A stretch of DNA of 64,000 nucleotides from Solirubrobacteraceae bacterium (GTDB lineage Bacteria > Actinomycetota > Thermoleophilia > Solirubrobacterales > Solirubrobacteraceae), in assembly GCA_030447505.1 (NCBI GenBank), contig JAUJOT010000002.1, positions 186,001 to 250,000 on the forward strand, written 5' to 3'. Numbering within the stretch: the stretch's first letter is position 1; every line of letters begins with the position of its first letter. Below are positions 9,920-37,219 of the stretch, in pieces. The notes under the pieces are model-generated. The model did no database searches and was not told where the DNA came from. It saw only the letters and a list, made by a program, of their open reading frames with translations. Both the position numbers and the translations under genes were made by a program.

Positions 9920-9926
9920 GCGCCGA

Positions 9927-9933
9927 TCCTCCC
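9927..9933 (-). promoter_or_regulatory. Shine-Dalgarno GGGAGGA deciding the LysE start
   Basis: Near-perfect anti-16S complement 7 bases before the GTG at 9919. It falls inside the longer frame starting at 9952, which argues for the shorter protein. Confidence 0.7.
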
Positions 9934-10112
9934 ACAACGCCGGTCGTGTCACGAGCGCTCGGCAGCAATGACCGACAGCACACGCACAACGATGCGAGGC
10001 AGCCGAACGGCGCGCTGAGCGGCGGTGGGTCCGACCGAGATCGCATTTGTAGGTTCCCGCTCTTCAGTGCGCGGCGTGCCGCTCCGGGCCCGTCACGCCG
10101 GGTGCGCGTCGC

Positions 10113-11555
10113 CTATTTCAGCGGCTCCATGGTCTGCGGGTTCAGCCGCTGGAGCTTTATCGCGTCCTTCTTCAGGTCTGGATCGGCGAGGACGTAGGTG
10201 TCAAAGCCCCGGCTCTTCCCGTTCGGATCGGACGTGTCGATCGCCGTGTCGAAGTTGTTGGCGTAGATGAAGCCGCGGTACCAATAGCCCGACCAGACGT
10301 TTGCGACGTGGGGCTCCTTCGCGGCGTAGTGGCCGAGCTGCTCCGGAGCCGCCGGGTCCGTGAAGTCGACGACGGTGACTCCGCCGTTGTACCACCCCGA
10401 CACGAGTACGTCGCGCTCCGTCGCGAGCGGCACGGTATTGAAGTTGTGCGCGGTACAGCCGATCGTCGTCTCCTGCTGCGGGATGCTGAACGTGCCCTTC
10501 GGCACGGGCAGGGCGGGGTTTGAGACGTCGTAGAACCAGATCGCGCCGAGCGGCACGTGCTCGTCGCCGTCGTCGGCGCACCCGGGCGAGGCGGCCGCGC
10601 CGCCGAGCTCGTCTCCGATCGCAAGCGTCCTGCCGTCATAGGAGAACGTCGTCGAGTGGTGGATGTTGATCGCCGGGTTGACGATGTGACTGACGACCCT
10701 CGGCTTGGCCGGATCGCTGATGTCCCACAGCTGCGACTCCGTCAGGCAGGCGGCGCCCGCGAGCTTGCCCGGCACAAAGACGGTGACGTCGTGGCAGCCG
10801 ATCGCCGGAGAGACATCGGGCGTCGAGCCCTGGATCACGTGGGCGCCAGCGGGATTCTGCAAGGGCACCGCGACGACCGAGATCTTCCTGTGCTTCTCGG
10901 CGTTGCAGTCGCTCGCGCTCTGACCGCCCAGCGGATAGGAGAGCACGTAGATCAGCACGCGCTTATTCGCCTCGTCGGGGACAAGCGTGTGCGTGTGCGA
11001 GCCGCACGGGGTGTCCACGAACGCGACCTGGCGGGGATTCGCGCGGTCGGCGATCGAGACCACCCGAATGCCCTCGTACGCCTGGCCGTCGAGCACCCTA
11101 CGGTCCGTCTGTCCGAGCGTCTTCGCGTCATCGCACTCGGGCTTGTCCATCGGCGAGTCGACGGACACGAAGGCGAGGTCCTTCCACACCGAGACGTCGC
11201 TCTGCGGCCCCTTGCAAGCGAACCGGCCGACGACCGTCGGTTTCGTCGGGTCGGCGATGCTGATCAGGCGGAAGCCGCCAGGGAAGGCGTAGTTGCCGGC
11301 GACGGCGAGGTCACCCCAGAAGGCCAGATCGGTGCCCATCCGGTACGGGTGCGTCTCGTTGTCGTCGGTGTTTCCGACGAGCAGCATGTTCTTGGAGTGA
11401 ACGTCCGACTCGTGGCCGATCGCAACCGGCGTCGAGCCGTCTGACAGGGTCGGGAGCGCGTCGCGCAGCTCCTGCGGAAGCTCGTCGTGCGCGGCGGCCG
11501 TACCGACCACCAAGACGATGACAGCAGCCGCCACAATCAAGATCCTCTTGGTCAT
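10113..11555 (-). CDS. Secreted LVIVD-type beta-propeller protein
   Basis: 480 residues with a clear Sec signal peptide (RILIVAAAVIVLVVGTAAAHD). The mature part has recurring blades of the form hh.hsD..NP..v, for example LISIADPTKPTVVGRF, VVSIADRANPRQVAFVDT, LWDISDPAKPRVVSHI, FYDVSNPALPVPKGTF and VVDFTDPAAPEQLGHY, as in LVIVD-repeat propellers. Histidine-rich loops (GSHTHTL, NIHHSTT, CTAHNFN) could hold metal. A ribosome site GAGG lies 5 bases before the ATG, and AATAAT about 60 bases upstream is a candidate -10. The enzymatic role, if any, is unknown. Confidence 0.85.
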   Translation of the reverse strand: MTKRILIVAAAVIVLVVGTAAAHDELPQELRDALPTLSDGSTPVAIGHESDVHSKNMLLVGNTDDNETHPYRMGTDLAFWGDLAVAGNYAFPGGFRLISIADPTKPTVVGRFACKGPQSDVSVWKDLAFVSVDSPMDKPECDDAKTLGQTDRRVLDGQAYEGIRVVSIADRANPRQVAFVDTPCGSHTHTLVPDEANKRVLIYVLSYPLGGQSASDCNAEKHRKISVVAVPLQNPAGAHVIQGSTPDVSPAIGCHDVTVFVPGKLAGAACLTESQLWDISDPAKPRVVSHIVNPAINIHHSTTFSYDGRTLAIGDELGGAAASPGCADDGDEHVPLGAIWFYDVSNPALPVPKGTFSIPQQETTIGCTAHNFNTVPLATERDVLVSGWYNGGVTVVDFTDPAAPEQLGHYAAKEPHVANVWSGYWYRGFIYANNFDTAIDTSDPNGKSRGFDTYVLADPDLKKDAIKLQRLNPQTMEPLK

Positions 11556-24162: not shown

Positions 24163-25203
24163 TCAGACGGTGAACGAGGCCGGCACGGCCAGGGCGGTGA
24201 AGGAGCGCACGGCGTAGCGATCGGTCATCCCGGCGAGGTAGTCGGTGACGCGCTGCGCGTGGTCGGCGCCGGGCGCGCCGCCACCGTCGGGCAGCCGCTG
24301 CGCGTCGGAGGCGTAGTGGTCGAAGAGCGTGCGAATGACGCGCTCGATCCGCGAGTGCTCCTGACGCGCCGCGGCGCCGAGATAGACCTGCTCGAACATG
24401 AACGCGCGCAGCGCGCTCATCGCCGCGCCGGCCTCGGCGCCCTGGACGACGTCGCCGGCCGCCTCGGAGTGCTCGACCAGGTCGTGCACGAGCGCATCGA
24501 TCCGCGCCGACCCATGCGAGCCGAGCACGGCGATCGCGGCGGCGGGCAGCGCCGCCTCGTCGAGCACGCCGGCGCGCAACGCGTCGTCGATGTCGTGGTT
24601 GATGTAGGCGATCCGGTCGACGATGCGCACGATCCGCCCCTCGAGCGTCGCCGGCCTCGACGCGCGCCCGGAGTGGCAGAGAATCCCGTCGCGGACGTCG
24701 GCGCAGAGGTTCAGCCCCGCCCCCTCGCGCTCGAGCACGTCGACGACGCGCAGCGAGTGCTCGTAGTGGCGAAAGCCGCCGCCGAAGCGCTCGGCGAGGC
24801 AGGCGTCGAGGACGGCCTCGCCGATGTGCCCGAACGGCGGGTGGCCGAGGTCGTGGCCGAGCCCGATCGCCTCCGTGAGGTCCTCGTTGAGCGCCAGCGC
24901 GCGGGCGACGGTGCGCGCAATCTGGGTGACCTCGAGCGTGTGCGTCAGGCGCGTGCGGAAGTGGTCGCCCTCGGGCGCGACGAAGACCTGGGTCTTGTGC
25001 TTCAGGCGGCGGAAGGCCTTGCAGTGCACGATCCGGTCGCGGTCGCGCTGTAGCGGCGTGCGCAGGGCGCAATCGGCCTCGTCGACGGCGCGGCGGGCGG
25101 GATACGAGCGCGCCGCGAGCGGCGACAGCTGCTCCTCCTCCCACGCCTGCCGCCGCGCCGCGAAACGCTGCGCGACGGCGCCCGGTGCGGTGGCTGCGTC
25201 CAT
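24163..25203 (-). CDS. dgt: Deoxyguanosinetriphosphate triphosphohydrolase-like HD protein
   Basis: 346 residues, ATG at 25203. It cleaves dGTP or other dNTPs to nucleoside and triphosphate. HD-domain ligands are visible in [28 protein letters not shown] and [18 protein letters not shown]. The start CRTP-like segment [25 protein letters not shown] is interrupted here only for brevity; it is the usual dNTPase N-terminus. Lies directly before dnaG, so it may tune dNTP pools with replication. Confidence 0.94.
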
Positions 25204-25232
25204 CCGTCGATTCTCGCAGCCGCGATGGCGCG

Positions 25233-25238
25233 TACGCT
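25233..25238 (+). promoter_or_regulatory. -10 box (TACGCT) of the medium-chain reductase gene
   Basis: TANNNT match 6 bases before GTG 25245; leaderless arrangement. It lies in the 41-base divergent gap shared with dgt. Confidence 0.45.
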
Positions 25239-25244
25239 GACGCC

Positions 25245-26168
25245 GTGCTCGCCCTGCTCGTCGCCGAGCAACCTCCGCACCTCGTGCTGAGCGAGGTTGC
25301 GCCGCCAGAGCCGCTGCCATTCCAGGCGCTCGTCGCCGTCAAGGCGTTCTCGCTCAATCGCGGCGAGTCGCGCCAGCTGCCCGACCGCCCGCGCGGTCAG
25401 GTTCCGGGCTGGGACGTCGCCGGCGTCGTGATGCGCGCGGCGGCCGACGGCAGCGGCCCGCCGCAGGGCGCGCGCGTCGTCGGGATCGTCCGCAACGGGG
25501 CATGGGCACAGCAGGTCGCGGTCGCCACGCAGAACCTCGCCGAGCTGCCCGATCCGGTGAGCTTCGCGCAGGCGGCGACGCTGCCGGTCGCGGGCATCAC
25601 TGCGCTGCGCGCGCTGGAGATCTGCGGGTTCGTGCTCGGCAAGCGCGTCCTCGTGACGGGCGCGAGCGGCGGCGTCGGGCGCTTCGCCGTCCAGCTCGCC
25701 GCGCGTGGCGGCGCGCATGTGACGGCGGTCTCGCGCAATGCCGAGCGGGCGCGCGGGCTGCGCGAGCTCGGCGCCGACGAGATCGTCTTCGACCTCGACG
25801 GCGAAGGGAGCTACGACGCCGTCGTCGAGGGCGTCGGCGGCGCGACGCTCGCCGCCGCGCTGCGGCTGGTCGCCGCTCGCGGCATCGTGGTGTCGTTCGC
25901 GTCGAGCGATCCGCAGCCTGTGAGCTTCCCGGCGCGCGCGCTGTTCGGCCGCGCACCCGGCGCCGCGCTGCGCGGGCTGTTCGTCTTCGAGGAGATCGAG
26001 CGAAGCGGGACCGGCGGCGCCGACCTGGCGCGCCTGGCCGCGCTCGTCGCCGCCGGCGAGCTCGATCCGCAGATCGACCTCGAGAGCTCCTGGCGCGATC
26101 CAGCGCCCGCGATCGCCGCCCTGCTCGAGCGCCGCGTGACGGGCAAGGCGGTCCTGCTCGTCGACTGA
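25245..26168 (+). CDS. Zinc-independent medium-chain dehydrogenase/quinone-oxidoreductase-like protein
   Basis: 307 residues from GTG at 25245. GroES-like N-terminus ([28 protein letters not shown]) and NADP-binding Rossmann domain with [19 protein letters not shown], the AxxGxxG-type signature of quinone oxidoreductase/MDR proteins. Structural and catalytic zinc cysteines are absent. Shorter than most MDRs (about 330). Substrate unknown. Confidence 0.88.
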
Positions 26169-26213
26169 CAGCCCGGGTTGGCGACGGCTACGTGCGGGAA
26201 GACTGCCAGGACG

Positions 26214-26711
26214 ATGTCGACGACACCGCCACCCGACCGCCCCACCGAGCGGCTGCAGCCGTCACCGCCACCATCGCCTGTCTACGAAGAGCGCGTCGTC
26301 GACCCGAACGGGATCCTCGTGCGCCTCGAGGACGCGATCGGCTCGCTGCGCACCGGCCTCGTGGTCGTCGGGGTGATCGGCGTCGCCGCGCTCGGCGTGG
26401 CGATCTACGCGCTGCTTGCCGACGACGAGGGGCGCGACGGATCGCGCAGCGGCCTCGCAACCGACTCGCGCGTGTCGCAGCTCGACGACCGCATCGATCG
26501 CATCAGCCGTCAGGTGCAGGACCTGCGCTCGGGCGGCGCCGGCAGCAGCGCTGAGGTCGAGGACCGCGTCGAGGCGCTCGAGCGCACGGTCAGGACGCTC
26601 GCCGACCGCCCCTCGGCCGATCCGCAGCAGGCGATCGACCAGCTCTCGGGCCGCATCGACGACATCGCCCGAGACGTCGACGAGCTCAAGCAGGCTCCAC
26701 CGACGCCGTAG
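26214..26711 (+). CDS. Single-pass membrane protein with coiled coil
   Basis: 165 residues from ATG at 26214. A cytoplasmic Pro-rich head, a membrane helix at about 43-65 (LVVVGVIGVAALGVAIYALL), then two coiled-coil stretches (SQLDDRIDRISRQVQDL and AEVEDRVEALERTVRTL) and a third (AIDQLSGRIDDIARDVDEL). Likely a self-associating envelope protein; no enzyme domain. Confidence 0.75.
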   Translation: MSTTPPPDRPTERLQPSPPPSPVYEERVVDPNGILVRLEDAIGSLRTGLVVVGVIGVAALGVAIYALLADDEGRDGSRSGLATDSRVSQLDDRIDRISRQVQDLRSGGAGSSAEVEDRVEALERTVRTLADRPSADPQQAIDQLSGRIDDIARDVDELKQAPPTP

Positions 26712-26768
26712 GCCCCTCCGAGGTCTCCCCGCCGCCGGCGCCTCGCGGCAGCACTGGTGGGCCGGAGG

Positions 26769-26795
26769 CGCGCCGCCGGCTCGGCGGCCGGCGCG
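26769..26795. terminator. GC-rich hairpin between convergent genes
   Basis: CGCGCCG/CGGCGCG stem extended by three more pairs across a one-base bulge, just before the ppdK stop. No U tract. Shared terminator for the coiled-coil gene and ppdK is plausible. Confidence 0.35.
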
Positions 26796-26799
26796 TGTC

Positions 26800-29400
26800 T
26801 CACCAGCCGCCGTCGTCGCCGGCGCGGATCGCGGCCTGCGCGGCGGCGACGCGCGCGACCGGCACGCGAAACGGCGAGCAGGAGACGTAGTCCAGGCCGG
26901 AGTTGTGGAAGAAGTCGATCGAGTCGGGGTCGCCGCCGTGCTCGCCGCAGATGCCGAGCTCGAGCTCGAGCTTCGTCTTGCGCCCGAGCCAGGCTCCCAT
27001 CCGCACGAGCTGCCCGACGCCGGGAGCGTCGAGCGTCTCGAACGGCGAGCGGTCGAAGACCTTGTTCTCGATGTACGGCGACAGGATCTTGCCCTCGATG
27101 TCGTCGCGGCTGAAGCCCAGCGCGGTCTGCGTGAGGTCGTTCGTGCCGAACGAGAAGAAGTCGGCGTGCGTGGCGATCGTGTCGGCGAGGAAGCACGCCC
27201 GCGGCAGCTCGATCATCGTGCCGACGAGGTAGTGCTCGCGCGCGACGCCCTCCTCCGCGGCGACGCGCAGGATCAGCGCCTCGATGATCTCGAGCTCGCG
27301 CTCGTAGTCGATCAGCGGCACCATGACCTCCAGGCGCGGCGGGTGGCCGAGGCGCGCGCTGACGGCGCACTGGGCGCGCATGATCGCCCGCACCTGCATC
27401 TCGTAGATCTCGGGGTGCAGGATCGCCAGGCGGCAGCCGCGCGTACCGAGCATCGGGTTGACCTCGCGCAGCGCGTGCGCGCGCGGGTCGTCCTCGTCGG
27501 GCGGCAGGAACTCGTGCAGCGGCGGGTCGAGCAGGCGGATCGTGACGGGCAGCCCGTCCATCGCCTCGAGGATGTCCTCGAAGTCCTGCTGCTGCAGGGG
27601 CAGCAGCTCGTCGAGCGCGGCGCGGCGCTCGTCGATCGTGTCCGCGAGGATCATCTCGCGCATCTTCGGCTGGCGGTCGGCGGCCATGAACATGTGCTCG
27701 GTCCGGCACAGGCCGATGCCGGTGGCTCCGAACGAGCGCGCCTTGATCGCGTCCTCGGGCGTGTCGGCGTTGGCGCGGACGCCGAGTGAGCGCAGCTCGT
27801 CTGACCACTCGAGCACCCGCTCGAAGTGCTCGTCCATCTGCGGCTCGACGAGCGGCACGTCGTCGATCGTGATCTGACCCGTCGTCCCGTCGATCGAGAT
27901 CACGTCTCCCTCGCACAGGAGGGTTTCGCCCACCCTCAGCTCCTTCGTCGCGAGGTCGATCTCGAGCGCGCTCGCGCCCGTGACCGCCGGCCGGCCCATC
28001 CCGCGGGCGACGAGCGCGGCGTGGCTGGCCTTGCCGCCCTCGGCCGTGAGGATCCCGCGCGCGGCGTGGAAGCCGGCGACGTCCTCGGCCTCGGTGAACG
28101 GGCGCACGAGGATCACGTCGCGGCCCGCAGCGGCCGCCTGCACCGCATCCGGCGCGCTGAAGACGATCTCGCCCTTCGCCGCGCCCGGCGAGGCGGCGAC
28201 GCCCTTGGCGAGCACCGCGTAGTCGACGGCGGGGTCGAAGGTGGGATGCAGCAGCGCGTCGAGCTTCTCGCAGTCGATCGTCGCGATCGCCTCGGCCTTC
28301 GTCAGCAGGCCCTCGTCGACGACGTCGCAGGCGAAGCGCACGGCGGCCTGCGCGGGCCGCTTCGCGTTGCGCGTCTGCAGCATGTACAGACGGCCTTCCT
28401 CGATCGTGAACTCCGTGTCCTGCATGTCCTTGTAATGCGCCTCGAGCGCGCGCAGGATCTCCATCAGCGTGGCGTGCGCCTCGGGCATCACGTCGCGCAG
28501 GTCGGCGATGTCCTGCGTGTTGCGCACACCCGAGACGACGTCCTCGCCCTGCGCGTTGACGAGGAAGTCGCCGGACGGCTCGGGTGCGCCGCTGACCTCG
28601 TCGCGGCTGAAGGCGACGCCCGAGCCCGACGTGTCGCCCTTGTTGCCGAAGACCATCTGCTGCACGTTGACGGCGGTGCCCCAGTCGTCGGGGATGCGGT
28701 TGATGCGCCGGTAGGCGACGGCGCGGTCGCCCGTCCAGGAGTCGAAGACGGCGCGGATCGCCTGTTCGAGCTGGTCTCTCGGTTCCTGCGGGAACTGCTC
28801 GCCGGTCTCGTGCTCGAAGATCTCTCGAAAGCGCGCTGTGAGCTGCTCGAGGGCGTCGACGTCGAGCTCGGTGTCGAGCGTCACGCCGTGCTGCTTCTTC
28901 GCGTCGGCGATCGCCTGCTCGAAGCGCTCGCCGGGGATGTTGCGCACGACGTTGCCGAACATCTGCACGAAGCGCCGGTAGGAATCCCACGCGAAGCGCT
29001 CGTTGCCCGTCTTGTCGGCGAGCCCCCGCACGGACCGGTCGTTGAGGCCGAGGTTGAGGACGGTGTCGAGCATGCCCGGCATCGACTCGCGCGCTCCGCT
29101 TCGGACCGACACGAGCAGCGGGTCGTCGGGGTGGCCGAGCGTCCTGCCGGCCGTCTGCTCGAGGCGAGCGAGCGCTTCGTCGACCTCCTCCGCCATGCCC
29201 TCCGGCGTCGTCTGGCCGTTCTCCATGTATGACACGCACGCCTCGGTCGTGATGGTGAACCCCGCCGGAACGCGCCCGGCGCCCAGGATGCGCGTCATCT
29301 CGGCGACGTTCGCGCCCTTTCCGCCGAGCAGCTCACGCATCTCCTTTGAGCCCTCGGCGAAGTCGTACACCCACTTCGCAGCAACTCGAGCGACTCCCAT
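26800..29400 (-). CDS. ppdK: Pyruvate, phosphate dikinase
   Basis: 866 residues from ATG at 29400, normal for the family. It interconverts pyruvate, ATP and phosphate with phosphoenolpyruvate, AMP and pyrophosphate. ATP-grasp region: LLGGKGANVAEMTR and SVRSGARESMPGMLDTVLN. Phospho-accepting His in GGKASHAALVARGMGRPAV. PEP/pyruvate barrel: GLCRTEHMF, NPMLGTRGCRL, and catalytic FGTNDLTQTALGFSRDD. A TAGGAT box 8 bases before ATG suggests leaderless transcription; recO lies just upstream on the same strand with its own start. Confidence 0.97.
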   Translation of the reverse strand: MGVARVAAKWVYDFAEGSKEMRELLGGKGANVAEMTRILGAGRVPAGFTITTEACVSYMENGQTTPEGMAEEVDEALARLEQTAGRTLGHPDDPLLVSVRSGARESMPGMLDTVLNLGLNDRSVRGLADKTGNERFAWDSYRRFVQMFGNVVRNIPGERFEQAIADAKKQHGVTLDTELDVDALEQLTARFREIFEHETGEQFPQEPRDQLEQAIRAVFDSWTGDRAVAYRRINRIPDDWGTAVNVQQMVFGNKGDTSGSGVAFSRDEVSGAPEPSGDFLVNAQGEDVVSGVRNTQDIADLRDVMPEAHATLMEILRALEAHYKDMQDTEFTIEEGRLYMLQTRNAKRPAQAAVRFACDVVDEGLLTKAEAIATIDCEKLDALLHPTFDPAVDYAVLAKGVAASPGAAKGEIVFSAPDAVQAAAAGRDVILVRPFTEAEDVAGFHAARGILTAEGGKASHAALVARGMGRPAVTGASALEIDLATKELRVGETLLCEGDVISIDGTTGQITIDDVPLVEPQMDEHFERVLEWSDELRSLGVRANADTPEDAIKARSFGATGIGLCRTEHMFMAADRQPKMREMILADTIDERRAALDELLPLQQQDFEDILEAMDGLPVTIRLLDPPLHEFLPPDEDDPRAHALREVNPMLGTRGCRLAILHPEIYEMQVRAIMRAQCAVSARLGHPPRLEVMVPLIDYERELEIIEALILRVAAEEGVAREHYLVGTMIELPRACFLADTIATHADFFSFGTNDLTQTALGFSRDDIEGKILSPYIENKVFDRSPFETLDAPGVGQLVRMGAWLGRKTKLELELGICGEHGGDPDSIDFFHNSGLDYVSCSPFRVPVARVAAAQAAIRAGDDGGW

Positions 29401-29408
29401 GGCGGGCG

Positions 29409-29414
29409 ATCCTA
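29409..29414 (-). promoter_or_regulatory. -10 box (TAGGAT) of ppdK
   Basis: TANNNT match 8 bases before the ppdK ATG. It overlaps the last bases of recO including its stop, so ppdK may be transcribed independently of recO. Confidence 0.45.
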
Positions 29415-30155
29415 CCTCGGAACCGCCGGACGCAACCGGACGTGCGCATGATGCGCGAGCGTCTCGTGGATCGCCCGTTCGGCTTCGCGCAACGCGCGAT
29501 CTCCGGCCTGCGGAACGTCGGCCAGGGCGGATCCCAGCGCGTCGGTCATGAAGGCGTGGGCCTCCTCGCCCAGCGCGAAGCCCGTCGCCTCGCACGCGCT
29601 GCAGACGACGCCGCCCGCGGAGCCGCTGAAGCCGGCGAGATGATCGGCCTCGCCGCAGGCCGCGCATGCCGCGAGCTGTGGCGCGAGGCCCGCGGCGAGC
29701 AGGAGCTTGAGGCGAAAGGCGAGCTGGTTTGCGTGCGTGGCGTGCGAGCGCTGCGAGCCTGCGCCCGCGTCGAGCAGCGCAAGCTCGTTGCACAGCAGCG
29801 CGAATACGCCAGGATGCGCCTCGTCGGTCTCGAACAGCCGCCCGACGGCGTCGCACGCGCGCGCCGCGCTGTCCAGCGCGGGCCCGTCCTCACGCAGGCG
29901 CCGATAGCCGTCGACCGTCTCAGCGCTCGTCACGGTCAGCAGATCGCTGCGCGGGCGGGCGGCTTCATACAGGACCATTTGCAGGCGAAAGAACGGCTCC
30001 AGGCGGCCGCCGAAGCGGCTCTTCGTGCGCCGCACGCCCTTCGCGATCGCGCTGACGCGGCCGCGCTGCGGGGTGTAGAGATGCAGGATCCGGTCGGCCT
30101 CGCCGTAGCGCAGCGAGCGCAGCACCACAGCCTCCGTCTTGAGGGCGCCTGCCAT
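29412..30155 (-). CDS. recO: DNA repair protein RecO
   Basis: 247 residues from ATG at 30155. RecO helps RecR load RecA on SSB-coated single-stranded DNA. N-terminal OB fold begins KTEAVVLRSLRYGEADRILHLYT and RVSAIAKGVRRTKSRFGGRLEPF is split across its strands; the four-cysteine zinc site appears as CAACGEADH and VVCSACEA. Length is normal. Divergent from the glutaredoxin-like genes with 15 bases between starts. Confidence 0.93.
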   Translation of the reverse strand: MAGALKTEAVVLRSLRYGEADRILHLYTPQRGRVSAIAKGVRRTKSRFGGRLEPFFRLQMVLYEAARPRSDLLTVTSAETVDGYRRLREDGPALDSAARACDAVGRLFETDEAHPGVFALLCNELALLDAGAGSQRSHATHANQLAFRLKLLLAAGLAPQLAACAACGEADHLAGFSGSAGGVVCSACEATGFALGEEAHAFMTDALGSALADVPQAGDRALREAERAIHETLAHHAHVRLRPAVPR

Positions 30156-30161
30156 TACACT
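30156..30161 (+). promoter_or_regulatory. -10 box (TACACT) of the glutaredoxin-like operon
   Basis: TANNNT match 9 bases before the first ATG (30171); it begins one base after the recO start codon in the divergent gap. Confidence 0.4.
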
Positions 30162-30170
30162 TTTCGCACC

Positions 30171-30425
30171 ATGAGAACGATCCAGATCTACACGAAAGAG
30201 GGCTGCCAGTTCAGCGGCCAGCTCCGGGAGCTCCTCGAGGAGAAGCAGATCCCGTACGAGGAGACCCTCGTCAGGCTCGACTCGCCGGAGCACCACGAGC
30301 TCGGCGAACGGTCTGGCTCGATGAAGCTCCCGCAGGCGTTCATCGGCGTCATCCCGATGGGAAGCACCCAGGAGGTGCAGGCGGCCTCGATCAACGGCAT
30401 GCTCGACGACCTGCTCGCCGACTGA
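30171..30425 (+). CDS. Glutaredoxin-like protein 1 (CQFS active site)
   Basis: 84 residues. Thioredoxin fold with IYTKEGCQFSGQLRELLEE and the cis-Pro loop MKLPQAFIG. The active site is C-x-x-S, lacking the resolving cysteine, as in monothiol glutaredoxins that act with glutathione-like thiols or carry Fe-S clusters. The GG near the C-terminus of its two sisters is replaced by GS/Q. First of three tandem paralogues of identical length; the next start follows its stop by 2 bases. Confidence 0.88.
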   Translation: MRTIQIYTKEGCQFSGQLRELLEEKQIPYEETLVRLDSPEHHELGERSGSMKLPQAFIGVIPMGSTQEVQAASINGMLDDLLAD

Positions 30426-30427
30426 CC

Positions 30428-30682
30428 ATGCGGCCGGTCACCGTCTACACCGACGAGATCTGCACGCTCTGCCATTCGGTCGAGAACCTGCTGAACGTTC
30501 GGGACATCCCATACGAGAAGGTCATGATCACGCCCGGATCGGACGAGCACGAGCAGCTCGCCGAGCGCTCGGGGCTGAAGGCGCTGCCACAGGTCTACAT
30601 CGGCAGCCTGCTGCTCGGCGGCTATCAGGAGACGCTCGCCGCCGACCAGGCGGGGATGCTCGCCGACCTGCTCGTCGACTGA
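30428..30682 (+). CDS. Glutaredoxin-like protein 2 (CTLC active site)
   Basis: 84 residues. Dithiol site in VYTDEICTLCHSVENLL, cis-Pro loop KALPQVYIG, then LLLGGYQETLAADQAGMLADLL. Actinobacteria use mycothiol or NrdH-type systems, so it may be a mycoredoxin- or NrdH-like disulfide reductase; neither is certain. Two bases after gene 1 and 26 before gene 3, clearly co-transcribed. Confidence 0.9.
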   Translation: MRPVTVYTDEICTLCHSVENLLNVRDIPYEKVMITPGSDEHEQLAERSGLKALPQVYIGSLLLGGYQETLAADQAGMLADLLVD

Positions 30683-30708
30683 CGTCCGCGACTGCACGTT
30701 CTCACGTC

Positions 30709-30963
30709 ATGCGCGAAGTGACCGTCTACACGACCGAGGGCTGCGGATTCTGCACCCGCGTCAAGATGCTCCTGAGCGCCCGCGGGATCGACTTTCGCGA
30801 GGAGAACCTGGCGGGCAGGCCCGAGGCGGTGGTCGAGCTCGCCGAGAAGACGGGCATGACGAGCCTGCCGCAGGTCATGGTCGGCAGCATCCTGATCGGC
30901 GGCTACGACGAAACCGCCGCGGCCGACCAGTCGGGGATGCTGGCGGATCTGCTGGAGGACTAG
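30709..30963 (+). CDS. Glutaredoxin-like protein 3 (CGFC active site)
   Basis: 84 residues. Dithiol site in VYTTEGCGFCTRVKMLLSA, cis-Pro loop TSLPQVMVG, GGYDETAAADQSGMLADLL. Shares the C-terminal ADQ.GMLADLL with gene 2, showing a recent duplication, while gene 1 is more diverged. Its stop lies 4 bases before the 6-bp target repeat of the insertion sequence. Confidence 0.92.
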   Translation: MREVTVYTTEGCGFCTRVKMLLSARGIDFREENLAGRPEAVVELAEKTGMTSLPQVMVGSILIGGYDETAAADQSGMLADLLED

Positions 30964-30966
30964 CGC

Positions 30967-30972
30967 GCTAGG
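30967..30972. repeat. IS target-site duplication, left copy (GCTAGG)
   Basis: GCTAGG flanks the left end of the insertion sequence; an identical copy is at 32020-32025. It fits the NCTAGN target preference known for IS481-type elements. Confidence 0.85.
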
Positions 30973-31939
30973 TGTAGGTCCCGAGCAGGTTGTTCAGGCG
31001 GCTGATCGGTGGTTGTCGGCCGATGGCTGCGTGTCGTCGGTGATGGTTGTAGCGGTAGATCCAGCCGTCAAGGGCTGCGGTGCGTTCGGCGCTGGTGGCG
31101 TAGATCGCGCCGTAGGCCCAGCCGGCGAGCATCGTGCGGATGAAGCGCTCGGCCTTGCCGTTGGTCTGCGGGCGTCGTGGCCGGGTGCGCAGGTGGCGGA
31201 TGCCCAGCGTTCTGCAGGCGATCGCGTGAACGGCTGAGCGGTACGCCGAGCCGTTGTCGGTAAGCAGGTCGCAGACGGTCATGCCGTGGCTCTCAAAGAA
31301 CGCGATCGCTCGGCGCAAAAACCCGATCGCGGTGGTTGCCTTCTCGTCGCTGAGGACTTCGGCGTAGGCCAGGCGCGTGGCGTCGTCGATCGCGACGTGG
31401 ACGTAGTCCCAGCCGACGATCCTGCGGTTGTGTCCCTCGCTGTCTTTGCGTGTGCGTCGCGGGTTGCGCTGGAGCCCGGTGATGCGTTTGCCCGCGCCGC
31501 CGTGGATGCGGCCGAGCTTCTTGACGTCGATGTGGATCAGCTCACCGGCGACCTGGCGCTCGTAGCGCTCCGCGGGCTCCAAGCCCAAGCGACCGAGGCG
31601 CCCCATCCCGATCCGCGTGAGGATCCCTGAGACCGTCGACAGCGGCCGGTCAAGGACCTCGGCGATCTCTGGCCCCGAGAAGCGCAACCGTCGCAGTGCC
31701 GCGATCGCCTCGATCGTCCGCTCGTCGGTGCGGTTGGCCACCAGCTGCGGCGTCGACGGCCTGTCGATCAAGCCATCGGGCCCTTCGGTGCGATACCGCG
31801 CGAGCCACTTCCGGGCGGTCCGCTCAGAGATCCCGACGCTCTGTGCGGCGTCTCGGACCTTCCAACTCTCCCTCTCGATTCGATCGACAAGCAACTGCCG
31901 GCCGATCACGCTGAGCCGCGCGTTAGCGTGCAACTTCAT
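30968..31939 (-). CDS. IS481-family transposase
   Basis: 323 residues from ATG at 31939. N-terminal helix-turn-helix (VRDAAQSVGISERTARKWLARY), second HTH region (LSTVSGILTRIGMGRLGRLG), then an rve/DDE domain: first Asp in LIHIDVKKLGRI, second Asp in DLLTDNGSAYRS, Glu in RPQTNGKAERFIRTM. All catalytic residues are present, so the element may be active. The stop TAG lies in the flanking target duplication, outside the terminal repeat. Confidence 0.95.
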   Translation of the reverse strand: MKLHANARLSVIGRQLLVDRIERESWKVRDAAQSVGISERTARKWLARYRTEGPDGLIDRPSTPQLVANRTDERTIEAIAALRRLRFSGPEIAEVLDRPLSTVSGILTRIGMGRLGRLGLEPAERYERQVAGELIHIDVKKLGRIHGGAGKRITGLQRNPRRTRKDSEGHNRRIVGWDYVHVAIDDATRLAYAEVLSDEKATTAIGFLRRAIAFFESHGMTVCDLLTDNGSAYRSAVHAIACRTLGIRHLRTRPRRPQTNGKAERFIRTMLAGWAYGAIYATSAERTAALDGWIYRYNHHRRHAAIGRQPPISRLNNLLGTYT

Positions 31940-32019
31940 CCGGTGTCTCCTTGGTGCTGGGGCTTCGTAACCACCAGCCTCCAGGGAGGCCCGGATGAAC
32001 AACGTCCTCAGGAACTACA
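30973..32019 (-). mobile_element. IS481-family insertion sequence, intact
   Basis: 1047 bp bounded by inverted repeats TGTAGGTCCCGAGCAGGTTG... (left, inward from 30973) and TGTAGTTCCTGAGGACGTTG... (right, inward from 32019), matching at 20 of 24 positions. Flanked by a 6-bp duplication GCTAGG. One transposase gene fills it. The target was the CTAG at the mutM stop codon; duplication restored that codon, so mutM is intact. The transposase itself has no stop inside the element and uses the CTAG of the duplicated target. Confidence 0.93.
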
Positions 32020-32025
32020 GCTAGG
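32020..32025. repeat. IS target-site duplication, right copy (GCTAGG)
   Basis: Second copy of GCTAGG; it contains the TAG stop codon (minus strand) of mutM. Confidence 0.85.
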
Positions 32026-32863
32026 GCGAGCGCTGGGCCCGCGGCCGCGTCTGGCAGGCCTCGCAGGCATACGTCCCGCGACCGGCAGCGACGAACTTGC
32101 GCACCGGCGTCCCGCAGACCGTGCAGGGCGCGCCCTCGCGGCTGTGGACGAGGAACTCGTCCTGAAAGGCCCCCTTCACGCCGTCCGGGTGGCGAAAGTC
32201 GTCGATCGACGCGCCGCCGGCGCCGAGCCCGGCCTGCAGGGAAGCCACCACGGCGTCACGCAGAGCGGCGACCTGCCCGCGCTTGAGGGCCCCCGCCCTG
32301 CGCAGCGGATGGATCCGCGCCCGGAACAGCGCCTCGTTGGCGTAGATGTTCCCGACGCCGGCGACGCGCCGCTGGTCGAGCAGCAGCGCCTTGATCGGCA
32401 TCCGGCGCTTGCGTGTCTGCAGGTACAGGTGCTCGGTCGTGAAGTCAGGGCCGAGCGGCTCGACGCCGAGGCGCTCGTCGAGGAACGCTTGCAGCGCGTC
32501 GCGGCCGAGCGCGAGCTCGCCGGTGCCGAAGCGGCGCGGGTCGCAGAACGACAACACGTGGCCGTCGTCGAGCTCGAGGCGCACGCGCACGTACAGCGTC
32601 CCCGGCGGCGCGTCGTAGAGCACGGTGCCCGTCATGCGCAGGTGCATGAGCAGGTAGACCTCGTCCTCCGCCTCGCAGATGAGGTACTTGCCGCGCCGCG
32701 ACAGGCGCTCGACGACCCGCCCCTCGAGCGCGGCGCTCAGCTCGGACGGCGCGATCGGCGAGCACCACTTCGAGTCAAGCACCTCGAGCGTGCGCAGCGT
32801 GCGGCCCTCGACGAGCGGCGCGAGCCGGCGGCGGATCGTCTCGACCTCGGGAAGCTCAGGCAT
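32021..32863 (-). CDS. mutM: Formamidopyrimidine-DNA glycosylase (Fpg/MutM)
   Basis: 280 residues from ATG at 32863. It excises 8-oxoguanine and formamidopyrimidines and nicks the abasic site. After Met the catalytic Pro-Glu (PELPEVETIRR), the Lys59 loop (RRGKYL), the H2TH helix (VAGVGNIYANEALFRARIHP) and the C-terminal zinc finger (CTVCGTPVRKF...YACEAC) are all present. The 3' end abuts the insertion sequence but the reading frame and stop are intact. Confidence 0.97.
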   Translation of the reverse strand: MPELPEVETIRRRLAPLVEGRTLRTLEVLDSKWCSPIAPSELSAALEGRVVERLSRRGKYLICEAEDEVYLLMHLRMTGTVLYDAPPGTLYVRVRLELDDGHVLSFCDPRRFGTGELALGRDALQAFLDERLGVEPLGPDFTTEHLYLQTRKRRMPIKALLLDQRRVAGVGNIYANEALFRARIHPLRRAGALKRGQVAALRDAVVASLQAGLGAGGASIDDFRHPDGVKGAFQDEFLVHSREGAPCTVCGTPVRKFVAAGRGTYACEACQTRPRAQRSP

Positions 32864-32933
32864 CGGTGCTCTGAGCGTAGTTGCTCGCCGGGGCCAGGCC
32901 CGAGCGCGCGCCCGCCGCCTCACGCTGGTTGTA

Positions 32934-33509
32934 CTAGTTCGGCCGGCGCAGCTTCAGCGAGCGGGTCATCGGGCCGAAGGTCTGCTCGTCGATCCGGGCG
33001 AACTCCTTCGGCGGCGCGAACGCGTCCATGACGACCTCGGCGCCGTGGCCGTAGGCGTGCAGGGAGCGCATCGAGCGCTGGACGCCCTGGTTGGTGAGGT
33101 TCGTTCCGGTGCCGACGACCTCGACCGCCCGGATCCCGGGCTTGACGACGAGCCGTGTCGACGTGAGCTTGAACGTCGGGTCGCGGCTCTCGATCTGGGC
33201 GACGAGCGCATCGCGCGCGGCGTTGAGCTGCGCACGCGTCTCGGGCAGTGGCTCAGTGCGCGGATAGCGCCAGACTGCAAGCTGCGCGGTGCCGATCGCG
33301 ACCGTCGCGACCTGTGACCCCTGGCCGGGCACGACGCGCCAGTTGGTCGGCGAGCGGAAGCGCACGCCCTGCTCGTCGAAGAACCGCTCCTGAAACGCCT
33401 TTGGCGCCGGGACGACGCTGAGGTCAGGAACCGGCGTGCGGTCGTTGCCGCAGCCGGCGAGCAGCGCGGCGAGCCCGGCGACGGCGAACGAGATCAGGGC
33501 GCGGCGCAC
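32934..33509 (-). CDS. Lipoprotein of unknown function
   Basis: 191 residues with signal and lipobox LAALLAGCGN. The mature part (FFDEQGVRFRSPTNWRVVPG, AVWRYPRTEPLPET, TRLVVKPGIRAVEVVGTGTN) resembles the single-domain extracytoplasmic lipoproteins whose fold begins with a short beta strand and a SP..W motif. Function unknown. It starts 12 bases after the xerD stop, so probably co-transcribed with it. Confidence 0.75.
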   Translation of the reverse strand: MRRALISFAVAGLAALLAGCGNDRTPVPDLSVVPAPKAFQERFFDEQGVRFRSPTNWRVVPGQGSQVATVAIGTAQLAVWRYPRTEPLPETRAQLNAARDALVAQIESRDPTFKLTSTRLVVKPGIRAVEVVGTGTNLTNQGVQRSMRSLHAYGHGAEVVMDAFAPPKEFARIDEQTFGPMTRSLKLRRPN

Positions 33510-33521
33510 CCCGGCATTCTC

Positions 33522-34481
33522 TCAAGTGCCCGGCGCGGAGCCGCCACCGGCCCGCGGATGCGTCCGGAAGTAGACGTCCCTCAGGCGGTCGGCGGAGAGG
33601 TGCGTGTAGATCTGCGTCGTCGCGACGTCGGCGTGCCCGAGCATCTCCTGCAGCGAGCGCAGGTCGCAGCCGCCGGCCAGCAGGTGCGTCGCGAACGTGT
33701 GGCGCAGCGTGTGCGGGCTCATGCGCCCGGCGAGGCCGGCGCTGGCCGCGTGGCGCTGGACGATCTTGTACAGGCCCTGGCGCGTCAGTCCGTTGCCGCG
33801 GTGGTTGACGAACAGGTGGCGCTCCTCGCGCAGCCCGACGAGCTTCGGCCGCCCGTGCTCGAGGTACGCGCGCGCGGCGATCGTCGCCTGGCGCCCGACG
33901 GGGATCAGGCGCTCCTTCGAGCCCTTGCCACGCGCGCGGACGATACCGCTGCCCAGGTCGACGCTGCCGACCGTCAGGTCGACGGCCTCGCTCGCACGAA
34001 GGCCGCAGGCGTACATGAGCTCGAGCAGGGCGCGGTCGCGCAGCGCGGCGGGCTCGGCCCCGCGCGGCGCGGCGAGGAGCTTGGCGACCTCGTCGCGCGA
34101 CAGCACCTGCGGCAGCTTCTGGCTCTTGCGCGGTGCGCGCAGGTCGGCCGTCGGGTCATGCGAGATGATCCGCTCGCGGCGCAGGTGACGGTAGAACGAG
34201 CGCAGGCAGGCGGTCTTTCGCTGGATCGTCGCCGGGGCGACGGGCGGGCGCTGCGGTCCGCCGGCCGTCAGCTCGGAGAGAAAGCGCGCGAGCTCGGCGT
34301 GGCCCAGCGTCGTGGCGTCGAGGCCGTCGCGCGCGAGGAAGTGGCCGAACTGCAGCAGGTCCGAGCGGTAGGCATCCAGCGTGTTGCGCGACAGGCCCCG
34401 CTCGAACTCGAGGTAGGCGAGGAAGTCGCGCACGTGCTGCTCGAACGGGCGCGTGAGCGGTTCGGTCCGGGCGACGGCCAT
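33522..34481 (-). CDS. xerD: Tyrosine recombinase XerD
   Basis: 319 residues. It resolves chromosome dimers at dif together with XerC. Core-binding domain 1-115; catalytic residues Arg162 (CGLRASE), Lys186 (RGKGSKER), His257/Arg260 (PHTLRHTFATHLL), His283 (LGHADV) and nucleophile Tyr292 (TQIYTHL) are all visible. It occupies the same position as xerD in the Mycobacterium pyrG-Nudix-xerD string, which supports XerD over an integrase. Confidence 0.93.
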   Translation of the reverse strand: MAVARTEPLTRPFEQHVRDFLAYLEFERGLSRNTLDAYRSDLLQFGHFLARDGLDATTLGHAELARFLSELTAGGPQRPPVAPATIQRKTACLRSFYRHLRRERIISHDPTADLRAPRKSQKLPQVLSRDEVAKLLAAPRGAEPAALRDRALLELMYACGLRASEAVDLTVGSVDLGSGIVRARGKGSKERLIPVGRQATIAARAYLEHGRPKLVGLREERHLFVNHRGNGLTRQGLYKIVQRHAASAGLAGRMSPHTLRHTFATHLLAGGCDLRSLQEMLGHADVATTQIYTHLSADRLRDVYFRTHPRAGGGSAPGT

Positions 34482-34548
34482 GTGCCGTTGCTTCGCCGCC
34501 GGCTGCGCGATCCATTCCGGTGCAACGCGCCGTGCGCCGGCCGTCTGG

Positions 34549-35082
34549 TCAGACGACGCTGCGCAACCACTGCAGCCCGATGATCGTCTTGGCGTCGTTG
34601 GTCGCGCTGAGCGCGCCGTCGAGATCGGCGAGCAGCCAGCGCACGAGCTCGATCCGCTCGGAGGCGTCCGGCTCGGCGTCGGCGCACGGGCGCAGCCCGG
34701 TCGCGGCGAAGACGTGGACGAGCTCGTCGGAGTAGCCGCTGGACGGGTAGTAGCACTCGACCTCCTGCCAGCGATCGGCCGCCTGTCCGATCTCCTCTGC
34801 CAGCTCGCGCTGGGCGGTCTGCAGCGGCGACTCGCCGTCGACGTCGAGCTTGCCGGCCGGCAGCTCGAGGGTGTACTGCAGGATCGCCTCGCGCGGCTGG
34901 CGTACGAGCCAGACGTGCTCGTCGTCGTAGGCGACGATCGCCGCGGCGGCCATGCGGTGGACGAACTCGCGCTGCACCTCCTCGCCGTCGCCGTGCCGGA
35001 AGCGCTCCACGCGCACCGAGAACTGGCTGCCCTCGAAGGGCTCGTCGCCGCCGAGCGGCTCGATCCGTGGGTCGTCGCTCAT
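34549..35082 (-). CDS. Nudix hydrolase, ADP-ribose pyrophosphatase type
   Basis: 177 residues; the ATG overlaps the upstream stop (ATGA). The Nudix box GKLDVDGESPLQTAQRELAEEIG carries the metal-binding REL.EE core; one extra residue lies between Gly and Glu compared with the textbook box, as in actinobacterial ADP-ribose enzymes. Preceding LQYTLELPAG is typical of the same branch. It sits between pyrG-linked genes and xerD, as in Mycobacterium. Confidence 0.92.
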   Translation of the reverse strand: MSDDPRIEPLGGDEPFEGSQFSVRVERFRHGDGEEVQREFVHRMAAAAIVAYDDEHVWLVRQPREAILQYTLELPAGKLDVDGESPLQTAQRELAEEIGQAADRWQEVECYYPSSGYSDELVHVFAATGLRPCADAEPDASERIELVRWLLADLDGALSATNDAKTIIGLQWLRSVV

Positions 35083-36095
35083 GTCATCTGCGCCAGCGCG
35101 CTGCCCGCCGCAAGCGCGGCCGAGAAGAACAGCGGGTCCTCGCGGCCCATCGAGCGCGTCGGCAGGCCGCTGGCGGCATACCCGTCGAGGTCGACCGCGA
35201 ACGTGCGCCAGTCGTGGCGTTCGTCGGCCGGCTCCTCGCCGGCAGGGATCGCGACGACGACCGCAGCGAGCAGCAGACCGAGCACCGTTCGCGTGTGATG
35301 GCTCAGGCCGCGATGGCGCGCGCGCAGGTCCGTGGAGGACATGCGCGGCACGAGCAGCGCGTCGCAGCCCAGCGCGAGAGCGGTGTGCAGGGAGTCGAGC
35401 GCGTGCAGGCCGCCATGCCCGAGCGACGACCCCGAGCCGAGGATCCCTGGGCCGGGACCGCACACGGCGGCGTCCCAGCCCAGCTCGGTGAGCGCGTGGT
35501 GCAGCGCCGCCGCAGTCGTGATCGCCTCCCCGTCGGCGCCGCCGTAGGCCGGTCCGGCCGTCAGGTGGCCGGCCAGCATCGCGTCGTCGCGCAGGTCGCG
35601 CACGACGCACGAGTGCCCGCCCGGCAGCGCGCCGCCGGGCGTCTGCACGTAGCCGAGCCGGCACCTGCCCCCGGTCGCCTGCCGAAACGCCCACGCCAGC
35701 GGCGCGAGCTGTCCGTGCAGCCCGATCACCGCTGCGGGCCTGCCGAGCGGCAGCTGCGGCGCTGACGGCGCGCCGTCGCAGTCGCCCTCCTCGACCGGCA
35801 GCACCGCGTGCTGGAGGCTCGTGTAGTTGAGCTTCATGACGTGCGCGCGCGGCGTCCCCGCGCCGTCGAGGCCGCGCGTGAGGTTCGCGTGGACGATGTC
35901 GAAGCCGCCGGAGCCGAGGCCGAGCTCGACGGCCTCGACGTTGACGATGACCTCGTCGCCCGGCTCGGCCGCGCCGACGAGCCCGACGTCGGCGATCGCG
36001 CTGCGCCGCTCGTCGCCGACCTGGATCGCCAGGCGCTGCTCCATCGGCTCGGCCGGCCCGACGGCGAGCACCATCGCGCGCCTCAGGCGGAGCAT
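35079..36095 (-). CDS. DUF3866 family protein
   Basis: 338 residues from ATG at 36095, overlapping the M20 peptidase stop by 13 bases. ATG at 36074 has a better ribosome site, but the first seven residues (LRLRRAM) fit the family start. Recognisable DUF3866 blocks: HVMKLNYTSLQHAVLPVEE, VIGLHGQLAPLAWAF, YVQTPGGALPGGHS, GPGPGILGSGSSLGHGG, RMSSTDLRARHRGLSHHT. Biochemical function is unknown. It is found next to the Nudix and xerD genes in many actinobacteria. Confidence 0.88.
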   Translation of the reverse strand: MLRLRRAMVLAVGPAEPMEQRLAIQVGDERRSAIADVGLVGAAEPGDEVIVNVEAVELGLGSGGFDIVHANLTRGLDGAGTPRAHVMKLNYTSLQHAVLPVEEGDCDGAPSAPQLPLGRPAAVIGLHGQLAPLAWAFRQATGGRCRLGYVQTPGGALPGGHSCVVRDLRDDAMLAGHLTAGPAYGGADGEAITTAAALHHALTELGWDAAVCGPGPGILGSGSSLGHGGLHALDSLHTALALGCDALLVPRMSSTDLRARHRGLSHHTRTVLGLLLAAVVVAIPAGEEPADERHDWRTFAVDLDGYAASGLPTRSMGREDPLFFSAALAAGSALAQMT

Positions 36096-37219
36096 GCCTC
36101 GAGCAGCGCGTAGGCGACGTCGAGCATCCCCTCCAGCGCGGCGACGCTGACGCGCTCGTCGGGCTCGTGGTTTCGCTCCGTCCCGTTGGCGAGGTTCGTG
36201 CAGTGAAAGCCCGCCGCCTCAAAGGCGTTTGCGTCCGAGCCGCCGCCGGTCGGCCGACGCGTCGATGCGTACCCGCAGACGCGCAGCGCCTGCTCGGCGG
36301 CGAGCACGGCGGGCGCATCGGGCGAATGGCGGTAGCCGTCGAACAGCCGCTGCGTCGTCACGTCGACGTCGCAGAAGCAGGACGGGGTGTTCGAGGCGTC
36401 GTGGGCGCAGGCGATCACCTCGGCGATCAGCTCCTCGGCCTTGGCCGGATCGAGCGAGCGCGCCTCTCCCACGACCTTGCAGCGCGCGGCGACGGTGTTC
36501 GTGCCGCCGCGCTGGCCGCCCTCGATCGAGCCGATGTTCGCCGTCGTCTGCTCGTCGATGCGCCCGAGCCTCATCGCGCCGATCGCGCGCGCGGCGGCCT
36601 CGATCGCGCTGCGCCCGCGCTCGGGGCGGATGCCGGCGTGCGCCGGCGTCCCGCGGAAGTCGGCCTCGAAGCGGTAGTACGTCGGTGAGGCGACGATGAT
36701 CTCGCCGATCGGCGAGGCGTGGTCGAAGACGTAGCCCCAGTCGCTGCGCAGCGTCCTGACGTCAAAGGCCTTTGCCCCCGCGAGCGCGTTCTCCTCGCTG
36801 ACGGTGAAGAGCAGCTCGAGCCCGACGGGCGAGCTCTCGACGGCGCATCGTCGCGCGACCTCGAGCATGACGGCGACTGCCGCCTTGTTGTCGGCGCCGA
36901 GGATCGTGTCGCCGCGGCTCACCCAGGCGCCGTCCTCGAGCACGGGCTCGATGACGCCCGCCTCGGGGACCGTGTCGAGGTGCGCGCAGAGCAGGATCGT
37001 GCGCTCGCCCCGTCCCGGGATCCGGGCCAGCAGGTTGCCGCACTGCGCGCCGACGTCGGCCGCCACACCGTCCTCCTCGACGTCGACGCCGATCGCGCCG
37101 AGCTCGCGCGCGACCGCCTCCGCGATCGCCTTCTCGCAGCCGAACGGGCTCGGGATCGCGCACAGGCGCGCGAACGTCTCGTTCAGGCGGCGGCGCTCGA
37201 CGTCGGAGGCGGGACGCAT
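36083..37219 (-). CDS. M20-family metallopeptidase (peptidase T/ArgE-like)
   Basis: 378 residues from ATG at 37219. Di-zinc ligands appear in LLCAHLDTVPEAG, GADNKAAVAVMLEV, TVSEENALAG, and a late His in NGTERNHEPDE. The dimerisation (lid) domain occupies about 180-290 (TPAHAGIRPERGRSAIEAAA). It probably hydrolyses small peptides or N-acyl amino acids. Between the small membrane gene and DUF3866 in one minus-strand run. Confidence 0.93.
   Translation of the reverse strand: MRPASDVERRRLNETFARLCAIPSPFGCEKAIAEAVARELGAIGVDVEEDGVAADVGAQCGNLLARIPGRGERTILLCAHLDTVPEAGVIEPVLEDGAWVSRGDTILGADNKAAVAVMLEVARRCAVESSPVGLELLFTVSEENALAGAKAFDVRTLRSDWGYVFDHASPIGEIIVASPTYYRFEADFRGTPAHAGIRPERGRSAIEAAARAIGAMRLGRIDEQTTANIGSIEGGQRGGTNTVAARCKVVGEARSLDPAKAEELIAEVIACAHDASNTPSCFCDVDVTTQRLFDGYRHSPDAPAVLAAEQALRVCGYASTRRPTGGGSDANAFEAAGFHCTNLANGTERNHEPDERVSVAALEGMLDVAYALLEACSA

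What the first reader, a model, noticed from the sequence alone, without database searches (positions are those of the whole stretch)
30171..30963. Three tandem glutaredoxin-like genes of identical length with different active sites
All three encode 84 residues. The active sites are CQFS, CTLC and CGFC. Genes 2 and 3 share a long C-terminal segment, gene 1 has diverged. A local triplication followed by change from dithiol to monothiol suggests division of labour (disulfide reduction against cluster or mixed-disulfide handling) in one operon.
Basis: partly seen in the sequence, partly recalled or inferred. Interest (0 to 1): 0.5.

Follow-up and report, generated by a model that had tools for sequence, protein, structure and literature searches.

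The report
Tandem glutaredoxin trio with monothiol copy
Three small redox genes lying side by side in an actinobacterium arose by copying one ancestral gene within a single genus, and one copy lost its second active-site cysteine, giving it a motif typical of iron-sulfur carriers on a protein body that is not of that type.

Summary
In detail: three 84-aa glutaredoxin ORFs at 30171-30425, 30428-30682 and 30709-30963, active sites CQFS, CTLC and CGFC. They are a real local multiplication: across Solirubrobacteraceae one dithiol glutaredoxin sits beside recO and fpg; at that site 6 of 7 genomes of the window's genus carry three copies, or four in one. Genes 1 and 2 group together; gene 3 is nearest the single-copy gene. 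Gene 1 is monothiol in 6 of 6 (CGFS in 4, CQFS in 2); single-copy relatives are CxxC in 74 of 74. Gene 1 is not a class II CGFS glutaredoxin: no five-residue loop, no WP motif, closest to E. coli Grx3. It resembles an engineered "CGFS on a class I loop" chimera, and has a lysine that 73 of 74 single-copy relatives lack. "One operon" is doubtful in sister genomes: in 3 of 6, gene 3 keeps its own promoter box, which also marks MoeZ, ErpA, CysM-like, TrxA and TrxB genes across the order. Division of labour is plausible but untested; mycothiol coupling is not supported.

The parts
30171..30425 (+). gene 1: monothiol glutaredoxin, CQFS, Lys9, single Cys
30428..30682 (+). gene 2: dithiol glutaredoxin, CTLC, Asp9; starts 2 nt after gene 1
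30709..30963 (+). gene 3: dithiol glutaredoxin, CGFC, the ancestor-like copy
30156..30161 (+). -10-like TACACT before gene 1; right half of the regulon box lost
   Evidence: 9 of 15 positions
30692..30707 (+). decayed remnant of the regulon box before gene 3
   Evidence: 10 of 15 in the window, 14-15 of 15 in G003, G005, G001; no site with up to 3 mismatches in the window
29412..30155 (-). recO, divergent left neighbour conserved at the family-wide locus
32021..32863 (-). fpg, right neighbour of the locus

Best explanation
The trio is a genus-specific local expansion of a single class I-type (Grx3-like) dithiol glutaredoxin that lies beside recO and fpg across the family. Shown: one dithiol gene elsewhere; three copies (four in one genome) in this genus; genes 1 and 2 closest to each other; gene 3 nearest the single-copy form; gene 1 fixed as a monothiol. 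Inferred: gene 3 keeps the ancestral job, dithiol disulfide reduction within a thiol, cysteine and Fe-S stress regulon, with thioredoxin reductase a likely electron source because trxB carries the same promoter box and the usual glutathione route was not detected. Gene 2 is a dithiol variant with an altered pocket. Gene 1 is a short-loop monothiol enzyme that uses Cys12 and Lys9 to form and resolve mixed disulfides between proteins and a small thiol, rather than passing on Fe-S clusters. Genes 1-2 have left the regulon box and probably run from their own -10.
For: Synteny and copy number; trees; motifs fixed by copy; short loop, Lys9, no WP, Grx3-like model; box before gene 3 in 3 of 6 genomes and before five other thiol/Fe-S gene families; no GshB or BshC match in 7 genus genomes, no MshC over cut-off in 61.
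Against: No biochemistry. The array as one clade is weakly supported (72/40, 77/54), and gene 2 with gene 3 is not rejected (p 0.227). The box is lost before gene 3 in 3 of 6 genomes, the window's among them. Gene 1 lacks the GG motif used for glutathione binding, which may mean it binds no small thiol. GCS2 genes are present in 7 of 7, so a gamma-glutamyl thiol may exist.
Confidence: 0.55

Rival explanations
1. Gene 1 is a cluster-binding monothiol on a class I scaffold, like yeast Grx6: it holds a [2Fe-2S] cluster between two subunits with a small thiol as co-ligand and serves as an Fe-S store or sensor.
For: CGFS in 4 of 6; no proline after the Cys, and PMC7138851 (passage) says the CPYC proline prevents cluster binding; engineered short-loop Grx5 held its cluster more stably (PMC7351949 passage); Grx6 holds a cluster (PMC5053157, abstract start in listing).
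Against: GG changed to GS, so a thiol co-ligand may bind poorly; the genome already has Grx4 next to BolA.
Confidence: 0.22
2. Gene 1 has lost catalysis and acts as a binding partner or regulator of its neighbours or of another protein.
For: One cysteine, GG lost, 14 gene 1-specific fixed positions.
Against: Cys12 and Lys9 are fixed in 6 of 6, and gene 1 is the best-conserved copy (88% mean column identity against 81% and 82%).
Confidence: 0.13
3. Gene 1 is a class II CGFS Fe-S transferase.
For: The CGFS motif itself; class II structures also appear in the fold list (3ipz and 2mma, Z 11.5).
Against: No five-residue loop, no WP, no match to the Grx4 model at E 0.01; best fold and sequence matches are class I.
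Confidence: 0.05
4. The three copies came together from separate origins, for instance by transfer.
For: Array clade support is weak in 84 columns; G026's single gene (Lys9, LPQ) falls near the array.
Against: Shared site, equal length, shared LPQ, shared promoter remnant before genes 1 and 3; among 399 class genomes the only matches above 62 bits to the gene 1 profile are array genes of this genus.
Confidence: 0.05

Closest known systems
Class I bacterial glutaredoxin 3 (E. coli Grx3, PDB 3grx, 1fov; TIGR02181)
   Same: Length, fold (Z 13.6, 2.1 A over 82 residues), short loop, cis-Pro; best NCBIfam match of all three
   Different: Below the TIGR02181 cut-off (50.0, 56.8, 68.8 of 90 bits); genes 2 and 3 lack the conserved Lys; gene 1 is monothiol and lacks GG
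Class II CGFS glutaredoxin (Grx4/GrxD)
   Same: CGFS motif in gene 1 of four genomes, CQFS in two
   Different: No five-residue loop, no WP motif, no GGxD, no Grx4 model match
Engineered human Grx5-loop chimera (PMC7351949, passages)
   Same: CGFS active site on a short CxxC/S-type loop with the lysine
   Different: Natural, derived from a class I gene, GG lost, partner thiol unknown
Yeast monothiol class I Grx6 (PMC5053157, listing only)
   Same: Class I scaffold with a single active-site cysteine
   Different: Grx6 uses glutathione; no glutathione synthetase match in 7 genus genomes
SigH regulon of M. tuberculosis (PMC4803200, passages), for the promoter box
   Same: Gene set: trxB1, trxB2, moeZ, cysM, Rv2204c (that Rv2204c is an A-type Fe-S protein is recalled)
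   Different: The box is a -10 overlapping ACTT-N4-AAGT with no conserved -35, unlike the SigH promoter (recalled); regulator unknown

Membership tests
Glutaredoxin (PF00462) | Score over the Pfam cut-off | tested here: met
   42.7, 36.0, 56.2 bits against 22.9
Glutaredoxin 3 equivalog (TIGR02181) | Score over the curated cut-off of 90 bits | tested here: not met
   50.0, 56.8, 68.8 bits; best match but below cut-off
Class I (CxxC/S-type) glutaredoxin | Short loop between Lys position and active-site Cys | tested here: met
   Position 9 to Cys12 in all three copies, as read against PMC7351949
Class I (CxxC/S-type) glutaredoxin | Conserved lysine (or rarely arginine) | tested here: inconclusive
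   Gene 1 Lys 6 of 6; gene 3 Thr; gene 2 Asp or Thr; 73 of 74 single-copy relatives Thr or Ser
Class I (CxxC/S-type) glutaredoxin | Thiol-disulfide exchange activity | not testable with these tools
   needs assays
Class II CGFS glutaredoxin | CGFS motif | tested here: inconclusive
   Gene 1: CGFS in 4 of 6 genomes, CQFS in the window and G003
Class II CGFS glutaredoxin | Five-residue loop extension before the active site | tested here: not met
   Absent in 6 of 6 gene 1 rows, present in the genome's own Grx4
Class II CGFS glutaredoxin | WP motif before the cis-Pro | tested here: not met
   SMKLPQ in 6 of 6 gene 1 rows
Class II CGFS glutaredoxin | Fe-S cluster binding and transfer | not testable with these tools
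   needs reconstitution
Mycoredoxin (TIGR02200) | Score over the curated cut-off of 89.5 bits | tested here: not met
   16.5, 19.9, 23.0 bits
Mycoredoxin (TIGR02200) | Mycothiol pathway (MshC) in the organism | tested here: not met
   MshC over cut-off in 0 of 61 genomes; weaker matches of about 250 bits are present and probably cysteinyl-tRNA synthetase (recalled)

The most novel reading that the evidence does not exclude
Gene 1 is a natural class I-to-CGFS convergence: a dithiol, lysine-less glutaredoxin lineage duplicated, and one copy gained the CGFS motif, gained the lysine and lost GG, making a monothiol protein specific for a thiol that is neither glutathione nor mycothiol, or for a stably held cluster. 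Its ancestor belongs to an undescribed Solirubrobacterales thiol/Fe-S regulon with a -10-embedded ACTT-N4-AAGT operator, perhaps read by an HxlR-type thiol sensor, that stands where SigR/SigH stands in other actinobacteria.
Probability: 0.25. Interest if true: 0.7.

Novelty: new variant of a known kind. Interest (0 to 1): 0.45.

Why it matters
What separates redox-active from Fe-S-handling glutaredoxins has been tested by engineering chimeras. Here evolution built one: a CGFS motif on a short-loop class I body, beside dithiol sister copies that serve as matched controls. The promoter box offers a testable thiol and Fe-S stress regulon in an order where neither mycothiol synthesis nor, in this genus, the usual glutathione synthetase was detected.

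Tried and rejected
Class II identity of gene 1: rejected on loop, WP motif and profile; the fold alone does not exclude it (class II structures listed at Z 11.5). Scattered separate origins: not supported. Gene conversion between genes 2 and 3 as cause of the shared C-terminus: within-genome identity (mean 76.8 of 108 nt) is no higher than between genomes (78.05), so it is better read as inherited. Mycothiol, bacillithiol and GshB routes: MshC 0 of 61 over cut-off, BshC 0 of 7, GshB family 0 of 7 in the genus though 8 of 61 relatives have it. Rrf2 regulators as readers of the box: present in 9 of 9 genomes, one lies about 0.8 kb from a box site in G020, no link established. Inverted repeats of 14 bases or more around the IS: none. 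tRNA in 25000-37000: none. Operator of YodB/HypR: passages of three papers gave no YodB operator sequence, so a likeness of ACTT-N4-AAGT to it is recall only. Paper searches (listings only) showed nothing on this trio or box; one search lists 2 papers holding both 'solirubrobacter' and 'glutaredoxin', neither on it by title. This is no proof of absence from print.

Dropped rows and weak points: 13 of the 142 box sites were not looked at. Genome G004 (77% complete) gave no match. The 'GG' column printed is unreliable (its pattern could catch an earlier GS or GG); the GG/GS statement rests. A recount gave 73 sequences with one odd active site because its pattern caught an upstream Cys; the stricter recount gives 74 of 74 as. 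In one search recO was searched with a badly framed query that still covered part of the gene; its hits mark the place of recO only, and recO itself is confirmed in the window.

Full report
Observation. The three ORFs are real and as described: 84 aa each, + strand, 2 nt between genes 1 and 2, 26 nt between genes 2 and 3. All match Pfam Glutaredoxin.

Where it lies. The window is C7:186001-250000 of its genome. Five named relatives of gene 3 (61-86% identity) are MAGs, four titled Solirubrobacteraceae and one Actinomycetota; a sixth, weak match (34%) is a Clostridiaceae. Neighbours: recO to the left, divergent; to the right an IS481 transposase, fpg, an unnamed gene and xerD.

Local multiplication. 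Gene 1 was sought in 151 genomes and gene 3 in 146 of the family. Outside the genus 127 family genomes matched, 122 of them once and 5 twice; 13 of the 146, G004 included, had no match. From 99 fetched loci I have 74 distinct single-copy sequences: 68 have a recO hit, 60 an fpg hit and 74 one or the other in the fetched stretch. In the genus (7 genomes) five have three copies and one (G006) four, at the same site; G004, 77% complete, gave none. Trees of 72 and 70 rows group gene 1 (100/99 in both), gene 2 (92/83; 94/74) and genes 1+2 (98/90; 99/91), with gene 3 at the base of the array. The array as one group is recovered but weakly supported (72/40; 77/54); only 84 columns are available. AU tests do not reject gene 3 as one clade (p 0.399) nor genes 2+3 together (p 0.227). 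So the copying is local; the order of branching is likely, not proven.

Active sites. Gene 1: CGFS in 4 and CQFS in 2 of 6 genomes. Gene 2: CTLC in 5; its two relatives in G006 are CTTC and CQSC. Gene 3: CGFC in 3, CSFC in 2, CGYC in 1. Single-copy genes: CxxC in 51 of 51 and in 74 of 74 of a larger overlapping set. The simplest reading is one change to monothiol in the genus ancestor, since fixed. Gene 1 has a single cysteine. Fourteen positions are fixed in gene 1 and absent from the 13 other array rows, among them Lys9, Ser15, Lys52 and Ser65, the last replacing a Gly of the GG motif. Gene 1 is the best-conserved copy (mean column identity 88%, against 81% for gene 2 with G006's extra row and 82% for gene 3).

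What gene 1 is not. PMC7351949 (passages) states that CGFS-type glutaredoxins carry a five-residue extension of the loop before the active site, anchored by a lysine conserved in glutaredoxins; PMC7138851 (passages) adds a WP motif. Gene 1 has the lysine but neither loop nor WP. It has no match to the Grx4 model at E 0.01; its best NCBIfam match is glutaredoxin 3, below that model's cut-off. An AlphaFold2 model made with 18 array rows (mean pLDDT 85.9) is closest to E. coli Grx3 (Z 13.6, 2.1 A over 82 residues; Foldseek E 4.4e-8); class II structures come lower (Z 11.5). The genome has a separate protein with loop, WP and GGCD beside bolA. Gene 1 is thus a class I scaffold that acquired a CGFS motif, a natural counterpart of the short-loop CGFS protein engineered in PMC7351949.

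The missing lysine. At that lysine's position 73 of 74 single-copy relatives have Thr or Ser and one (G026) Lys. Gene 3 has Thr, gene 2 Asp or Thr, gene 1 Lys in 6 of 6. [quoted passage not shown] With no GshB-family match in 7 genus genomes, no BshC in 7 and no MshC over cut-off in 61, but GCS2 genes in 7 of 7, I infer that the ancestral protein is not reduced by glutathione or mycothiol. What gene 1's lysine contacts is unknown.

Promoter box. The stretch before the single-copy gene is conserved: CTATACTTTnTGAAGT, mostly ending 1 nt before ATG. Of 51 upstream regions 39 match at 11 or more of 15 positions; 17 of 10,200 shuffled ones do. Before gene 3 it is kept in G003 (14), G005 (15) and G001 (14), not in G002 (7), G006 (7) or the window (10). 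Gene 1 keeps a -10-like part (7-9 of 15); gene 2 in five genomes and the two middle copies of G006 score 7-8, no better than shuffles. So the copied unit probably included the promoter, genes 1-2 left the box, and in this genome gene 3 may depend on read-through. 'One operon' may hold here but is doubtful in G003, G005 and G001.

A regulon. A 20-nt pattern with up to 3 mismatches gives 1-6 sites in each of 9 genomes and none for the reversed pattern. A 17-nt form with up to 2 mismatches gives 142 sites in 41 genomes (my sum of the table) against 12 for the reversed control; 2 of the 41 have none. I looked at 129 of the 142: 14 lie before Grx genes by coordinates, 15 were read and 100. Downstream: MoeZ-type ThiF-rhodanese 31, A-type Fe-S protein 20, Grx 14, CysM-like 13, TrxA 10, TrxB 9, together 97 of 129. 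The other 32 include an ABC transporter (7), NadA (2), HxlR regulators (2), and CysE-like, DsbA-like and CMD-family proteins (1 each); 18 remain unassigned. Pfam was run on single representatives of seven of these families and both HxlR proteins; TrxA, TrxB, NadA and DsbA-like are my reading of the sequences. In 21 of 27 MoeZ cases the ORF start found lies 27-37 nt after the box, so the box is not a ribosome-binding feature. It is a -10-like TATACT run into the dyad ACTT-N4-AAGT, with no conserved -35. The M. tuberculosis SigH regulon has trxB1, trxB2, moeZ, cysM and Rv2204c (PMC4803200, passages; that Rv2204c is an A-type Fe-S protein is recalled). The box thus marks a similar gene set under a different signal. 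The regulator is unknown; two HxlR genes with the box (L239, L257) are candidates by possible self-regulation only.

Mechanism. Shown: sequence, synteny, motif change, box. Inferred: gene 3 as ancestral dithiol reductase of this regulon, gene 2 a dithiol variant, gene 1 a monothiol mixed-disulfide enzyme. The main rival is a cluster-holding protein. Both need assays.

Verdict. New variant of a known kind; interest 0.45. A clean case of local copying with a fixed monothiol change; the regulon may be the more valuable lead.

Noticed in passing
L160-L177 and L238-L337; own genome C5:10154-10170 (before erpA) and C1:211519-211535 (before moeZ): A promoter box GCTATACTTTnTGAAGY marks a small thiol/cysteine/Fe-S gene set across the order, 142 sites against 12 control sites in 41 genomes; 97 of 129 examined fall before six gene families.
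   Followed up: partly
L239 (G101), L257 (G093): HxlR-family regulators with a CxxC near the N-terminus carry the box before their own gene: candidate regulators.
   Followed up: no
L241, L246, L250, L264: A small basic protein with a shared GSxFGNLP-SRPGxRSPRR-like stretch and no Pfam match (one member tested) recurs after the box.
   Followed up: no
own genome C12:230960-231190 with C12:233000-233758; C7:394983 with C7:393298; G003 C155: Glutaredoxin-like genes lie within about 4 kb of GCS2 (glutamate-cysteine ligase type) genes, while no GshB-family match was found in the genus.
   Followed up: no
own genome C5 around 9482-10174 (L002, L162): A canonical CGFS Grx4 next to bolA, with an erpA-like gene divergent from them that carries the box.
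   Followed up: partly
window 30968-32002: IS481-family transposase ending 4 bp after the stop of gene 3, between the array and fpg; the query for it gave no displayed hit in the sister loci.
   Followed up: partly
L096 (G026): The only single-copy relative with the lysine also has the array-type LPQ and falls near the array in the trees.
   Followed up: no
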